Shown piece by piece: positions 44,169-59,610 of a stretch of 64,000 nucleotides of DNA. Position 1 is the first letter of the stretch, and each line of letters begins with the position of its first letter. The translations under genes and the position numbers were made by a program. The stretch is from positions 124,001-188,000 of the forward strand of contig NZ_JPLZ01000002.1 of NCBI RefSeq assembly GCF_000735135.1. The letters run 5' to 3'. This DNA is from Chryseobacterium sp. FH1. GTDB taxonomy: Bacteria > Bacteroidota > Bacteroidia > Flavobacteriales > Weeksellaceae. Under the pieces are notes generated by a model. That model did not search any database. It saw only the letters and a program-made list of their open reading frames with translations, and was not told the origin of the DNA.

Positions 44169-44783
44169 CTACTCCGGTGCTTTGAAAACGTTGTCGTCTG
44201 AATGGAATCCGGCCACACCTCCACTTACAGCAAATTTCATTGCTTCGGCGGCGCTCATTCCCGTCACTTCCTTTACATTATCGAATTTGGTGATGATCAC
44301 CCAGCCAGAAACGGCGTAGGAGTGTGGCAGATAAACGGCAATCATATGCTCGAGATCGACAACAGACATATCGGTTTGCGTCAAAAATCCGATTCGCCAG
44401 ATCTCCGGTGCTTCATTGGTTTTTACCCAAACCGGTACATTGAATTTTTTCTTATCACCAACGAAAGATCCTAAAACGTCTTTCAAAGAAGTGTAAATAA
44501 ATTTGATCCCTGGAATATGCTCCAAAACATAATCTACACCGTCGACAATCAATCTTCCGATGATGAATTTGTTCCCGAAAAAACCAATAAAAGTCGTTCC
44601 GAAGATAACAATGAAAAATACAAGTCCAGGAAACTTTTCTGAGACAGAAGGCACCAGATTATCGATGCTGAAAACCACGCTCCAAATGACCCAAACCGTG
44701 ATGGCAAGAGGCCCAATGATAATCAATCCTTGGATGAAGGACCGTATGAAGAGTCGAAGATAATCGTTGAGATTTCTGTCCAT
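44169..44783 (-). CDS. DUF502 membrane protein
   Basis: 204 residues. Two hydrophobic helices near the start (FIQGLIIIGPLAITVWVIWSV, about 17-37, and GLVFFIVIFGTTFIGFFG, about 53-70) are followed by the typical DUF502 segments, IPGIKFIYTSLKDVLG, EIWRIGFLTQTD, VYLPHSYAVSGWVIIT, and MSAAEAMKFAVSGGVA. The function is unknown; plant homologues (COV proteins) act in development, which says nothing about bacteria. It is 8 nt downstream of miaE, so cotranscribed with it. The next gene on the strand, tnaA, is separated by the repeat region. Confidence 0.9.
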   Translation of the reverse strand: MDRNLNDYLRLFIRSFIQGLIIIGPLAITVWVIWSVVFSIDNLVPSVSEKFPGLVFFIVIFGTTFIGFFGNKFIIGRLIVDGVDYVLEHIPGIKFIYTSLKDVLGSFVGDKKKFNVPVWVKTNEAPEIWRIGFLTQTDMSVVDLEHMIAVYLPHSYAVSGWVIITKFDNVKEVTGMSAAEAMKFAVSGGVAGFHSDDNVFKAPE

Positions 44784-53868: not shown

Positions 53869-56271
53869 ATGACAGAATTTGAAAATATCAGTTTTGAGGA
53901 AATTCTAGACGAAGGTTTCGGAATCGTGGCAGAAGAAATCAATCTGGACGAGCTCGGCAATCAAGATGCTGACAAAACCCAAACTGTTTTCCCAATTCTC
54001 CCTGTGAGAAATATGGTAATGTTCCCAAAAGTCATTACGCCAATCACGGCTGGAAGGGAAAAATCCAAAAAACTTTTGGAAGATGCTCAAAGAGAAAATA
54101 AACTCGTGGGAATCATTAGCCAAAAAAATCCTAACGAAGAAAACCCGACCGAGCAAGACCTCTACTCTGTTGGGACTTTGGCAAAGATTCTTAAAATCAT
54201 CACCCTTCCAGAAGGTAACATCACAGCGATCACGAGAGGTGTTCAGAGATTCAAAGTGAAAAAATTTGTTTCCAATGAGCCATATTTTTTGGCAGAAATT
54301 ACCAAACAAAAAGATACACAACCCAAAGATAAAGAGGAATTTTCCGCATTGATGGACAACATCAAAGATCTTGCAGAAAAGATCATCAACATCGACCCAA
54401 ACATTCCGAACGCGGCGCAATTTGCGCTTAAAAACATTGATGGTCAAGAAGATCTGTTGAATTTTGTTTCCGCAAATGGAAATTTTTCTTCAGACAAAAA
54501 ACAAAGATTGCTGGACGAAAAAACATTGATCGGACGTGCAAAAAACTTGTACGAATTGATGCACGACGATTTCCGTCATTTGGAACTGAAAAGTCAAATT
54601 CATCAGAAAACCAGCAAGGATCTGGACAAGCAACAGAGAGAATATTTTCTGAATCAGCAAATCCGAACCATCCAGGAAGAATTGGGTGGAGGCGCAGAAT
54701 CTGATGCAGACGAGTTCAGAAAAAAAGCATCCAAATTAAAATGGAATGACGAGGTTGAAAAACACTTCGAAAAAGAATTACAAAGACTTTCCAGACAGCA
54801 TTCCAGCTCGCCGGATTACAATGTTCAGCGTAATTATCTAGACTTTTTCACTGATTTGCCTTGGGAACATTATTCCAAAGACGCCTTCGATTTGAATAAA
54901 GCAGAAAAGCTTTTGGATAAAGAACATTTCGGATTAGAAGATATTAAGAAAAGAATTTTGGAACACATCGCTGTTCTAAAATTGAAAAATGATATGAAGT
55001 CGCCAATCCTTTGTTTGGTTGGTCCTCCAGGTGTTGGGAAAACCTCGCTTGGAAAATCGGTTGCTGATGCACTTGGCAGAAAATATGTGCGTGTTTCTCT
55101 TGGTGGATTGCACGACGAAAGCGAGATCCGCGGACACAGAAAAACCTACATTGGTGCGATGGCGGGAAGAATTCTTCAGTCTATTAAAAAATCGGGAACA
55201 TCAAATCCTGTAATTGTGTTGGATGAGATCGATAAAATTGGACAAGGAATCCACGGCGATCCAAGTTCAGCTTTGCTGGAAGTTCTTGATCCTGAGCAGA
55301 ATAATAATTTCTATGATAATTTCTTAGAACTCGGTTACGATCTTTCGAAAGTGATGTTCATTGCAACAGCCAATTCGCTATCTTCGGTTCAGCGTCCGCT
55401 TTTGGACAGAATGGAGATCATCAGCATTGCAGGCTACACTTTAGAAGAAAAGATTGAAATCGCAAAACGACATTTGGTCAAAAAACAATTGCTCGAAAAT
55501 GGTCTGGATGCGAAACACCTTAGACTTGGAAACTCTGAATTAAGACACATCATAGACGCTCATACTTCTGAAAGTGGCGTGAGAACTTTGGAGAAAAAAA
55601 TTGCAGGAATTGCCCGTTGGGTAGCGCTCCAAATCGCGATGGAGAAAGAATTTGACCCGAAAATTTCTGTTGATAAAGTTGATGAGATCCTTGGTGTTCC
55701 AAGACCTAAAACTTTGGCAGAAATCACAGATGTTCCCGGCGTAGTAACAGGTTTGGCCTGGACAAGTGTTGGTGGCGATATTCTCTTTATTGAAAGTATT
55801 CTATCGAAAGGAAAAGGTGCTTTGACAATGACAGGAAACCTTGGAAATGTGATGAAGGAATCTGCGACCATCGCTTTGGAATTCATCAAAGCGCATTACG
55901 AGCAATTGGGGATTTCTGAAGAAGATATCGAGAAAAAAAACATCCACGTCCACGTCCCGGAAGGCGCCACACCGAAAGATGGACCATCTGCCGGAATTGC
56001 AATGCTGACCTCGATGGTTTCAAGCTATAAAAACAAAAAAGTGAAACCGCATTTGGCAATGACAGGCGAGATTACCTTAAGAGGAAAGGTTCTTCCTGTT
56101 GGTGGAATCAAAGAAAAATTACTTGCTGCAACCAGAGCCGGAATCAAAGAAGTCATTCTTTGCGAAGCGAACAAAAAAGATGTGGAGGAAATTAAAAAAG
56201 ATTATCTTAAACATCTGAAAGTCAATTATGTGAATAATATGAGCGAAGTAGTTGAGATTGCTTTGAAGTAA
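53869..56271 (+). CDS. lon: ATP-dependent protease Lon
   Basis: 800 residues, LonA type. N-terminal substrate domain (FPILPVRNMVMFPKV, from about 41), helical part with NQQIRTIQEELG, AAA+ module with Walker A GPPGVGKT (385-392) and VIVLDEIDK, sensor residues, and the C-terminal protease domain with the Ser-Lys dyad (GPSAGIAMLTSMVS and the lysine in RGKVLPVGGIKEKLLAATRAG). It degrades damaged and regulatory proteins in the cytoplasm. Single-gene unit with a palindrome at its start and a terminator after it. Confidence 0.98.
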   Translation: MTEFENISFEEILDEGFGIVAEEINLDELGNQDADKTQTVFPILPVRNMVMFPKVITPITAGREKSKKLLEDAQRENKLVGIISQKNPNEENPTEQDLYSVGTLAKILKIITLPEGNITAITRGVQRFKVKKFVSNEPYFLAEITKQKDTQPKDKEEFSALMDNIKDLAEKIINIDPNIPNAAQFALKNIDGQEDLLNFVSANGNFSSDKKQRLLDEKTLIGRAKNLYELMHDDFRHLELKSQIHQKTSKDLDKQQREYFLNQQIRTIQEELGGGAESDADEFRKKASKLKWNDEVEKHFEKELQRLSRQHSSSPDYNVQRNYLDFFTDLPWEHYSKDAFDLNKAEKLLDKEHFGLEDIKKRILEHIAVLKLKNDMKSPILCLVGPPGVGKTSLGKSVADALGRKYVRVSLGGLHDESEIRGHRKTYIGAMAGRILQSIKKSGTSNPVIVLDEIDKIGQGIHGDPSSALLEVLDPEQNNNFYDNFLELGYDLSKVMFIATANSLSSVQRPLLDRMEIISIAGYTLEEKIEIAKRHLVKKQLLENGLDAKHLRLGNSELRHIIDAHTSESGVRTLEKKIAGIARWVALQIAMEKEFDPKISVDKVDEILGVPRPKTLAEITDVPGVVTGLAWTSVGGDILFIESILSKGKGALTMTGNLGNVMKESATIALEFIKAHYEQLGISEEDIEKKNIHVHVPEGATPKDGPSAGIAMLTSMVSSYKNKKVKPHLAMTGEITLRGKVLPVGGIKEKLLAATRAGIKEVILCEANKKDVEEIKKDYLKHLKVNYVNNMSEVVEIALK

Positions 56272-56300: not shown

Positions 56301-56336
56301 ATCCGTTCGGGAAATTTCTCGGACGGATTTTTATTT
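56301..56336 (+). terminator. lon terminator
   Basis: An 11-bp stem (56301-56311 with 56318-56328, two G-T pairs), 6-nt loop and T-rich tail. Confidence 0.85.
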
Positions 56337-56384
56337 TAGACTTCAATTCATATTTTTATTAAATTCGTTGATTATAACCATTTT

Positions 56385-58127
56385 ATGAAAAAAAATTACT
56401 CTGGATTTTTATTTTGTTTATTTGCTTTAAACCTTTTTAATGCTCAGGAAATACTTCCAAAAGGTTTAACAGTTGAAGAAAAGCTTCTTCTTCCTCATTA
56501 TAAATTTTCTGAAGGCAGAAGAACGCCTGCTCCCGCAACGCCTGTCAGAACTGCAGCGCAATGGGAAGAAGTGGAATATCTGGTGATCCGATGGACTTCA
56601 TAATACCAGAATGTTCAAAGACAAATCGTGCAGGCGGCAGTGAAAGAATGTAAAGTTTTGATTGCGACCACTTCCGAAGCTTCCGTTCGTACCTACTTGA
56701 CAAATAACGGTGTTGATTTAACGAATGTTAGATTTTTAAACGCCAACACAAACAGTATCTGGATTCGGGATTATGCTGCCAATACAGTTTATTCTAATGA
56801 TGTTGGGGAACGCGCTTTGGTAGATTGGATTTATAATCGTCCACGTCCGTTGGACAATACTTTGCCAACAAGTCACGCCGCCTACGCTGGTGTTCAGCTT
56901 TATGTGACGGATACTTCGCCGAATGATTTGGTAAACACCGGAGGAAATTTTATGTCAGACGGAATGGGAAATGCTTTTGCTTCAAAACTGATTCTTGATG
57001 AAAATAAAGCAGGAAATTCCTACAACGTCAGTGCAAAAACTGAAGCACAAGTTGACAAAATTCTCAAAGATTATATGGGAATCAATTCTTATCGTAAAAT
57101 GACTGTTTTGCCTTACGACGAGATTCACCACATCGATATGCACATGAAACTTTTGGATGAAGAGACGATTCTAGTAAGCCAATATCCAGAAGGTATTGCG
57201 GATGGGCCTCAAATCAAACAAAACATCGATTATATTAAGAATACATTCAAAACACCGTTTGGAAATGATTATGACATCAAATGGATTCCTGCTCCGGCAA
57301 GCACAACTGGTGCTTATCCTAATACTGGTGGTGCTTACAGAACTTACACCAATGCTGTCATCATCAACAAAACTATTTTGGTTCCAACTTATCGTCCGGA
57401 AGTTGACGAGCCTGCTCTTAATCTTTATAAACAACTAATGCCAGGCTACACAGTTGTAGGAATTGACGTAGATAATGCGGGCGAGGATTTGATCAGCTTG
57501 AGTGGCGCCATTCATTGTATTACGCATACGATTGGTGTGGCTGACCCGCTTTGGATTACACATTCCAAACTCAAGAATGCTACCAGTTTTACAGTTCCAA
57601 TCGAAGCACAGATCAAACATAATTCTGGGATTTTCACAGCCAAAGTTTTTTGGAGAGAATCTGGCGATATTGGTTTTCAGGAAACAAGTATGACGAATTC
57701 TGGTGATAATAAATGGGTTGCAAATCTTTCGTTACCGTCAACTTCAAAGCAAATCGATTATTACATTTGGGCTCAGGCCAACTCTGGAAAATCTATTGCA
57801 AGACCGATTGTAGCGCCTGATGGCTTTTGGACTTTTGATGTTTCTGCACTTTCCGTGGACGAATTAGCATTTAAAAATATAGAAGGGCCTTTCCCTAATC
57901 CAGCTGAGAATAAGGTTCAGTTCAATCTTAAAAATATTTCAGGAGACATTAATATTTCAATTCATAATGTTATAGGACATAAATTATCAGAACAAAAAAT
58001 CAATAGCACAAATGGAATAATTTCACTTGATTTGAATCCAAAATGGAGTGGTGTTCTATTAATTTCATTTGAGGGAAAATTTGGAAAAGTGACCAAGAAA
58101 TTAATAAAAAAATCAGACTTGAATTAA
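56385..58127 (+). pseudogene. Secreted peptidylarginine/agmatine-deiminase-type protein with T9SS tail, interrupted by an in-frame TAA
   Basis: One frame runs from the ATG at 56385 to the stop at 58127 and is broken only by TAA at 56601-56603 (codon 73); both parts are in the same frame. Part 1 (72 residues) has a signal peptide (NLFNAQ) and the start of the deiminase domain (AAQWEEVEYLVIRWTS). Part 2 continues YQNVQRQIVQAAVKE and carries the guanidino-deiminase catalytic residues: D in IWIRDYA (codon 129), H-x-D in HHIDMHMK (249-251), and the nucleophile Cys in GAIHCITHTIG (codon 378). The C-terminus is a T9SS type A signal (GPFPNPAENKVQFNL onward). The overall plan is that of Porphyromonas peptidylarginine deiminase. 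A later GTG at 56628 could start part 2, but it would lack a signal peptide. Whether the stop is real, a sequencing error or is read through is open. Confidence 0.8.
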
Positions 58128-58815: not shown

Positions 58816-59610
58816 CTATAATGAGTTGATTGCTTTGAGAATCCTATCCCTATCAACAACCATTGCTTGGATATGTTCTCCAGAAAATTCGATGAATTGT
58901 TTTGGTTCCGATGCGTTGTCATAAACCAATTGTCCCTGCTCAAAAGGAATCGTCGAGTCACCTTTGCTGTAGATGAACAATTTCGGAAGGTCTCTAAGTG
59001 CTTTCACATCTTCTTTTGCTGAGTAAGGTGAAATTAGCATACTAGAAATCATTTCTTTGTACTGAGGCGCAAAATGAATCGCAATATCCGTGAACGAAGA
59101 CATTCCGCCATCGATGATCAAACCTGAGATTTTAGACTGATTCTCCTTAGCCAAATGTGTTGCAATCTGAGAACCTAAAGAAGCGCCGTAAAGATAGATT
59201 TTCGTATCCCGGATATCTTTTCTGCGTAGTAAATAATTGAACATTTTTTGCCCGTCTTCTGCCACATTTAAGTGGGTTGGTTTTCCAGTGGATTTTCCAT
59301 AACCTCGGAAATCGATCATTACAACTTGAAGCCCATTTTCAACCAATGGTTTTGTGATGTACTGATAAGTTGTAATGTTTCCCCCAGCGCCGTGAAAAAA
59401 GAAAACTGTTTTCTTGATAGACTTCGATTCAGGTTTCAAAACGACTGCTGTGATGGTGTCACTATCGATAGGAAAACTAATTTTCTCAATGTTTTTAAAT
59501 TCCAAAGGTTTCATTTCTTTGTTCGGCTGGTAGAATTTGTCATCCATCTGAGCTTTGGAGAAAATAGATAGTAAAATGAGGAACAAAGAGAAGAATAATG
59601 ATGTTTTCAT
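58816..59610 (-). CDS. Secreted alpha/beta hydrolase
   Basis: 264 residues. Signal peptide (about 1-21, ending FSKAQ). Oxyanion segment FFHGAGGN (71-78), nucleophile Ser144 in the GASLG elbow, then an acidic residue in YSKGDSTIPF (about 219) and the histidine in FSGEHIQA (about 246). DFRGYGKSTGK after strand 4 is typical of the BD-FAE/lysophospholipase-like hydrolases. The substrate is unknown; export suggests a nutrient or lipid esterase. Single gene between terminators. Confidence 0.88.
   Translation of the reverse strand: MKTSLFFSLFLILLSIFSKAQMDDKFYQPNKEMKPLEFKNIEKISFPIDSDTITAVVLKPESKSIKKTVFFFHGAGGNITTYQYITKPLVENGLQVVMIDFRGYGKSTGKPTHLNVAEDGQKMFNYLLRRKDIRDTKIYLYGASLGSQIATHLAKENQSKISGLIIDGGMSSFTDIAIHFAPQYKEMISSMLISPYSAKEDVKALRDLPKLFIYSKGDSTIPFEQGQLVYDNASEPKQFIEFSGEHIQAMVVDRDRILKAINSL

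What the first reader, a model, noticed from the sequence alone, without database searches (positions are those of the whole stretch)
56385..58127. In-frame stop in a T9SS-exported peptidylarginine/agmatine-deiminase gene
Both halves lie in one frame with a single TAA (56601-56603), and the catalytic Asp, His-x-Asp and Cys residues and the T9SS tail are intact. Exported peptidylarginine deiminases with T9SS signals are best known from Porphyromonas (PPAD), so a chryseobacterial relative is of interest. A stop with no other decay suggests very recent inactivation, phase variation by point mutation, readthrough, or a sequencing error.
Basis: partly seen in the sequence, partly recalled or inferred. 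Interest (0 to 1): 0.75.

Follow-up and report, generated by a model that had tools for sequence, protein, structure and literature searches.

The report
Freshly broken exported arginine-deiminase gene
A gene for a secreted enzyme that probably converts arginine at the ends of peptides into citrulline carries one early stop codon in this Epilithonimonas genome, most likely a very recent loss of a gene that many members of the genus lack altogether.

Summary
A 580-codon frame (56385-58127) is interrupted once, by TAA at 56601-56603. Catalytic Asp, His-x-Asp, Asn, Cys, the Ig-like domain and the T9SS tail are intact. Intact 580-aa orthologues (83-91% identical after the stop) lie at the same place, after lon, in four other genomes of the genus, three of them Epilithonimonas caeni, hungarica and mollis, so the host is an Epilithonimonas, not a Chryseobacterium. 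In the other 17 of 22 genus genomes no copy follows lon. The catalytic domain was under strong purifying selection along this lineage, so the stop is very recent or a sequencing error; no other gene of the window comparable with three relatives is clearly broken. I found no positive evidence for phase variation or readthrough. The product resembles Porphyromonas PPAD rather than agmatine deiminase: it keeps the Arg pair that binds C-terminal arginine (absent from 22 of 22 agmatine-deiminase-like proteins aligned) but lacks PPAD's Tyr233. Relatives occur in 32 of 395 Bacteroidota genomes sampled. Verdict: ordinary recent pseudogene of an interesting exported PPAD-like family.

The parts
56385..58127 (+). 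Interrupted gene of a T9SS-exported PPAD-like peptidylarginine deiminase (580 codons including the stop at codon 73, plus the final stop)
   Evidence: intact 580-aa orthologues
56385..56600 (+). N-terminal open piece, 72 aa: signal-peptide-like start plus the segment that forms the first strand(s) of the catalytic domain in the modelled orthologue
   Evidence: secondary structure of the E. caeni orthologue model; signal peptide judged by eye only
56601..56603 (+). In-frame TAA stop codon (codon 73)
   Evidence: also counted as 1 TAA inside the match by the profile search
56604..58124 (+). Open piece after the stop, 507 codons
56628..58127 (+). Mechanical ORF from the first start codon listed after the stop (GTG), 499 aa; would lack the signal peptide and first strand; no evidence that it is translated
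   Evidence: model
56619..57530 (+). PAD_porph catalytic domain (Pfam PF04371, 118.9 bits, profile positions 36-319)
56769..56771 (+). Codon of catalytic Asp (PPAD Asp130 equivalent)
56838..56846 (+). Arg-Pro-Arg, equivalent of PPAD Arg152 and Arg154, which bind the carboxylate of a C-terminal arginine
57129..57137 (+). His-Ile-Asp, equivalent of PPAD His236 and Asp238
57351..57353 (+). Codon of Asn, equivalent of PPAD Asn297
57516..57518 (+). Codon of the nucleophilic Cys, equivalent of PPAD Cys351
57537..57827 (+). Ig-like domain region, approximate (the phmmer alignment to PPAD chains runs on to PPAD construct residue 415)
57891..58112 (+). T9SS type A C-terminal sorting domain
56360..56367 (+). 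TAAATTCG, -7-like promoter element, present upstream of all five orthologues compared
   Evidence: the Bacteroidota -7 consensus is recalled
56301..56328 (+). Inverted repeat followed by a T-rich run, probable lon terminator between lon and this gene
   Evidence: read by eye
53869..56271 (+). lon protease gene, upstream neighbour in all five genus genomes found to carry the deiminase gene
   Evidence: TIGR00763 886.1 bits, cut-off 608.05

Best explanation
This is a very recently inactivated (nonsense) copy of an accessory gene. The intact gene, still present in sister species, makes a protein exported by the Sec system and then the type IX secretion system, with a PPAD-like guanidine-modifying catalytic domain and an Ig-like domain. 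It most likely converts C-terminal arginine of extracellular peptides (perhaps also free arginine) to citrulline. In this strain translation ends after 72 residues, which hold little more than the export signal and the first strand of the catalytic domain, so no exported enzyme is made. Shown: the stop, the intact orthologues, conservation of catalytic and Arg-binding residues, past purifying selection, T9SS components in the genome, and absence of the gene after lon in 17 of 22 genus genomes. Inferred: the substrate, the lack of product, and that the base is real rather than a read error.
For: Single stop, otherwise 579 sense codons colinear with four intact 580-aa orthologues. Own-branch catalytic-domain dN 0.015-0.017 against dS 0.46-0.77. 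Even if every nonsynonymous change in that domain on this branch were neutral, the time since inactivation is at most 0.016 substitutions per site (95% upper 0.027); P(no further stop) would be 0.26 at 0.02 and 0.035 at 0.05. No other clear break among 44, 40 and 37 comparable reference ORFs from three relatives. 5 of 22 genus genomes, this one included, carry the gene directly after lon, 17 of 22 do not. T9SS: SprA 2027.2 bits and 108 sorting-tail matches. The best solved relatives are PPAD chains, E 3.8e-43 to 9.4e-42; the next is 1xkn, deposited as a putative peptidyl-arginine deiminase, E 1.1e-15, and the first named agmatine deiminase is 3hvm, E 5.1e-12. The E. caeni orthologue model matches PPAD with target TM 0.85-0.86. 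Arg152/Arg154 equivalents are kept in 80 of 80 family loci and absent in 22 of 22 agmatine-deiminase-like proteins.
Against: No reads, no second isolate of this species and no transcript or protein data. The N-terminal 72 codons and the Ig+tail part changed faster on this branch (dN about 0.088 and 0.080-0.088) than on the three sister branches (about 0 to 0.025); the branch is longer too, but some earlier relaxation cannot be excluded. Synonymous distances are high and near saturation (the Ig+tail dS to G009 could not be computed), so dS values are rough. PPAD's Tyr233 contact is not conserved (Glu here; no Tyr in 80 of 80 loci), so specificity may differ from PPAD. Mean pLDDT of the model was only 79.6.
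Confidence: 0.75

Rival explanations
1. Sequencing or assembly error: the strain carries an intact gene and the stop is a wrong base call.
For: Only one defect in a gene otherwise under strong constraint; the orthologues examined are open (4 of 4 in the genus; 80 of 80 kept loci without a stop in the match, though these were picked as best matches; 31 of 31 other matches).
Against: No other clear break among 44, 40 and 37 comparable reference ORFs; assembly 99.86% complete in 12 contigs; no homopolymer or repeat seen at the site by eye. Consensus substitution errors are rarer than strain-level pseudogenes (recalled, not measured here).
Confidence: 0.17
2. A shorter cytosolic protein is made by restart at the GTG at 56628 (499 aa) and still works.
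For: A long ORF exists from that GTG and its catalytic residues are intact.
Against: It would lack the export signal while keeping a T9SS tail, and would lose strand 63-69 and most of helix 72-85 of the catalytic domain (numbering of the modelled orthologue). Residues W60, E61, E62 and W70, which precede the restart, are invariant in 27 of 27 aligned members.
Confidence: 0.04
3. Programmed readthrough of the stop, or phase variation by reversible point mutation, controls the exported enzyme.
For: The catalytic part after the stop is well conserved; a promoter-like element is kept.
Against: TAA is the ordinary terminator here (31 of 39 ORFs of 200 aa or more). No orthologue examined carries a stop in the match. 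No repeat or slippery run was seen at the site by eye. No tRNA gene in the window (whole-genome tRNAs not examined). Conservation is equally explained by recency.
Confidence: 0.04

Closest known systems
Porphyromonas gingivalis peptidylarginine deiminase, PPAD (PDB 4yt9, 4ytb, 4ytg, 5ak7, 5ak8, 6i0x)
   Same: Catalytic domain with Asp130, His236, Asp238, Asn297 and Cys351 equivalents, Arg152/Arg154 pair, Ig-like domain, T9SS tail and signal-like start (the T9SS export of PPAD is from PMC5445135)
   Different: 28-29% identity in the fold alignment of the orthologue; Tyr233 replaced by Glu; encoded in a flavobacterial genus; here interrupted by a stop
Agmatine deiminase AguA (own-genome relative in L002, next to an AguB-like gene)
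   Same: Same guanidine-modifying superfamily and catalytic residues
   Different: 352 aa, ends at the catalytic domain, no T9SS tail seen; Ala/Phe in place of the Arg pair. The window protein scores 53.7-56.1 bits against the two agmatine deiminase models, L002 287.2-312.6; both are below the curated cut-offs (381.8 and 483)
Recent bacterial nonsense pseudogenes
   Same: Single premature stop in a frame otherwise conserved and accessory in the genus
   Different: Nothing unusual beyond its recency

Membership tests
PPAD-like T9SS-exported peptidylarginine deiminase | PAD_porph catalytic domain | tested here: met
   PF04371, 118.9 bits against cut-off 25
PPAD-like T9SS-exported peptidylarginine deiminase | Five catalytic residues Asp, His, Asp, Asn, Cys | tested here: met
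   all present in the window piece; 80 of 80 family loci
PPAD-like T9SS-exported peptidylarginine deiminase | Arg152 and Arg154 equivalents (C-terminal arginine binding) | tested here: met
   present here; 80 of 80 loci; phylum-wide 24 of 29 for Arg152 and 28 of 29 for Arg154
[quoted passage not shown]
   Glu here; no Tyr in 80 of 80 loci or 29 of 29. I therefore call it PPAD-like, not PPAD
PPAD-like T9SS-exported peptidylarginine deiminase | Ig-like domain after the catalytic domain | tested here: met
   phmmer alignment to PPAD continues to chain residue 415; orthologue model aligned over 453-457 columns, target TM 0.85-0.86
PPAD-like T9SS-exported peptidylarginine deiminase | Citrullinates C-terminal arginine | not testable with these tools
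   needs an assay on an intact orthologue
T9SS cargo | Type A sorting tail and T9SS components in the genome | tested here: met
   TIGR04183 over cut-off; SprA 2027.2 bits, cut-off 200; other components not searched
T9SS cargo | Sec signal peptide | tested here: inconclusive
   hydrophobic N-terminus seen by eye in the 72-aa piece; no predictor run
Agmatine deiminase AguA | Score over the curated family cut-off | tested here: not met
   56.1 against 483 and 53.7 against 381.8 bits. Weak test alone: the own-genome L002 protein also stays below (312.6 and 287.2), though it scores over five times higher
Agmatine deiminase AguA | No arginine pair at the Arg152/Arg154 positions | tested here: not met
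   the window protein has both; 22 of 22 agmatine-deiminase-like proteins have Ala/Gly and Phe/Tyr there in the alignment
Recent nonsense pseudogene | Intact, colinear orthologues in relatives | tested here: met
   4 genus genomes, 580 aa each
Recent nonsense pseudogene | Signs of relaxed selection after the stop | tested here: not met
   catalytic-domain dN/dS on the own branch about 0.02-0.03; expected only for old pseudogenes, so this bounds the age
Recent nonsense pseudogene | Stop present in the living strain | not testable with these tools
   no reads or second isolate

The most novel reading that the evidence does not exclude
The gene belongs to a widespread but little-described family of T9SS-exported C-terminal-arginine deiminases in Bacteroidota well outside Porphyromonas, which share PPAD's catalytic set, Arg152/Arg154 pair and Ig-like domain. 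Extracellular citrullination would then be a common bacterial trait rather than a Porphyromonas speciality, repeatedly lost in Epilithonimonas, with this strain caught in the act.
Probability: 0.45. Interest if true: 0.55.

Novelty: new member of a known kind. Interest (0 to 1): 0.3.

Why it matters
The stop itself is an ordinary event. [quoted passage not shown] Proteins with the same catalytic set and substrate-binding arginines occur in many flavobacterial and other Bacteroidota genomes. If they are real C-terminal-arginine deiminases, the origin and non-disease role of PPAD become testable in environmental bacteria.

Tried and rejected
Agmatine deiminase as the identity: rejected on score and on the Arg pair. 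The score test alone is weak, since the own-genome L002 protein, which I label agmatine-deiminase-like, is below the curated cut-offs too. The label of the other 21 aligned proteins rests on their length and alignment only; they were not scanned.

Chryseobacterium as the host: rejected by the named Epilithonimonas orthologues; no tool named the species of the window itself.

A second broken gene in the window (58816-59610, one stop in the comparisons): rejected, the stop lies six codons upstream of the window gene's own ATG at 59610.

Lateral transfer against vertical loss: a tree of partial lon (midpoint rooted) puts this genome with G001 and G018 (support 0.999), which show no deiminase gene after lon (in G001 only 768 bases were available). 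Synonymous distances of the deiminase gene to the three nearest orthologue genomes (0.96-1.22) lie within those of the neighbours sufS (0.69-0.81), lon (1.14-1.40), psd (1.05-1.37) and cdsA (1.05-2.33), which fits vertical descent and repeated loss. The dN order conflicts: in the deiminase this genome is nearer the trio than G009 is, in lon the reverse. I left this open.

Literature: no held paper had all terms for peptidylarginine deiminase + type IX secretion + Chryseobacterium (0 papers) or PPAD + C-terminal arginine + Flavobacteria (0 papers). The listings gave nothing that I recognised, from titles and abstract starts, as describing this family in Epilithonimonas. PMC7864903 (passages) already shows centipede PADs nested in a large tree of bacterial PADs, one derived from Bacteroidetes. 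PMC12618676 (passages) held only a reference to PPAD. Fetched but not analysed: L131 and L132.

Full report
Observation. The 72-aa and 507-aa pieces, with the one stop codon, equal the 580 codons of intact orthologues. The window was compared with the matching regions of three relatives. Of 53, 49 and 49 reference ORFs of at least 100 aa, 45, 43 and 41 had hits, and 44, 40 and 37 aligned at over 55% identity and were judged. This gene and the 58816-59610 gene were the only ones crossed by an in-frame stop, and in the second the stop lies upstream of the gene's own ATG; no ORF was split between frames; one short reference ORF near 50.5 kb aligned over only 69-74%. Among the hits left out for low identity, one (G015, 54.7%) crosses two stops opposite the window's ORF 44169-44783 and looks antisense.

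Identity. After the stop the protein carries Pfam PAD_porph and a T9SS tail. Its nearest solved relatives are the PPAD structures (E 3.8e-43 to 9.4e-42). Next come 1xkn, deposited as a putative peptidyl-arginine deiminase (E 1.1e-15), and agmatine deiminases such as 3hvm (E 5.1e-12). The PPAD alignment continues through the Ig-like domain. An AlphaFold2 model of the intact E. caeni orthologue (mean pLDDT 79.6) matches PPAD with target TM 0.85-0.86 over 453-457 columns, against 0.70-0.80 over 354-393 columns for ranks 8-30, mostly agmatine deiminases. The catalytic Asp, His-x-Asp, Asn and Cys are present. So are the two arginines that bind the carboxylate of a C-terminal arginine in PPAD (residue roles from PMC4893104, passages). 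Of 22 agmatine-deiminase-like proteins from the genus and neighbours, including the one of this genome, none has either arginine in the alignment. The L002 protein of this genome scores 287.2-312.6 bits on the agmatine deiminase models, below their cut-offs, and lies beside an AguB-like gene (317.6 bits, also below its cut-off); the window protein scores 53.7-56.1. PPAD's Tyr233 is not conserved. I therefore call it PPAD-like and expect C-terminal peptidyl-arginine as substrate; this is inference.

Host and distribution. The 91-83% orthologues lie in G016, G015, G010 and G009. In 22 genomes of the genus, 5 (this one included) have the gene directly after lon. The other 17 show none in the 1.5 kb after lon (768 bases in G001, where the contig ends); one weak 29.6% hit in G018 lies inside lon and is taken as chance. 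One search listed no full-length copy elsewhere in the 22 other genus genomes it examined. Across the phylum 32 of 395 genomes match the family profile at E <= 1e-40, this one included, and it is the only one of the 32 with a stop inside the match; some of the 32 are partial, weaker matches. In 80 of these 80 the matched stretch has no stop, but broken copies were selected against. Three of the 80 have short frames: L105 and L108 are cut by contig ends, L090 is 536 aa.

Age of the stop. On this genome's own branch the catalytic domain has dN 0.015-0.017 against dS 0.46-0.77. If all nonsynonymous changes there were neutral the gene could have been free for at most 0.016 substitutions per site (95% upper 0.027), and further stops would be expected soon after: P(no further stop) 0.26 at 0.02 and 0.035 at 0.05. 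The stop is therefore very young or a read error. Against a fully clean picture, the first 72 codons and the Ig+tail part evolved faster here than on the sister branches, and synonymous sites are near saturation. The upstream promoter-like element is conserved.

Mechanism. With the stop, translation yields a 72-aa export-signal stub. A restart at GTG 56628 would lack the signal and the first strand of the catalytic domain. T9SS components are present (SprA; 108 sorting-tail matches), so the export route as such looks intact; the other components were not searched. I found no positive evidence for phase variation or readthrough: no repeat seen at the site by eye, and TAA is the common terminator (31 of 39 long ORFs).

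Comparison with print. [quoted passage not shown] gingivalis. PMC10394638 (passages) places PAD proteins of P. gulae and P. loveana with that of P. gingivalis. PMC7864903 (passages) shows centipede PADs nested in a large bacterial tree, one derived from Bacteroidetes. The breadth of the exported PPAD-like family with conserved Arg152/Arg154 seen here goes beyond the first two statements, but I cannot say that it is unreported: only the searches were made, in an open-licence library.

Verdict. Confirmed observation, ordinary explanation: a recent loss-of-function (or, less likely, a read error) in a new member of a known kind. The more interesting thread is the family, not the stop.

Noticed in passing
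L128:2420-3145 (G000:C6:663419-664144): A second T9SS cargo remnant in the same genome: an open piece without a signal-like start (by eye), an in-frame TAA at L128:2939-2941 directly before the sorting tail; a 93% identical relative in G009 has a 308-aa open frame.
   Followed up: partly
downstream of lon in 22 genus genomes (L133-L154): The spot after lon is variable: deiminase present in 5 of 22, absent in 17 of 22, and a small ORF and a DoxX-like gene (name recalled; no NCBIfam hit) also come and go.
   Followed up: partly
L177, L178, L179: Large PPAD-like proteins (open frames 886-1064 aa) in one genus of another family keep the catalytic set and the Arg pair.
   Followed up: no
L176, L181-L184: Distant relatives with Pro, Gly or Tyr at the Arg152 position in the alignment: possible change of substrate, though the profile matches of L181-L183 start after that position, so the alignment there is less sure.
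   Followed up: no
L002:413-2346: Open agmatine-deiminase-like gene next to an AguB-like (N-carbamoylputrescine amidase-like) gene in the same genome, both below the curated cut-offs.
   Followed up: partly
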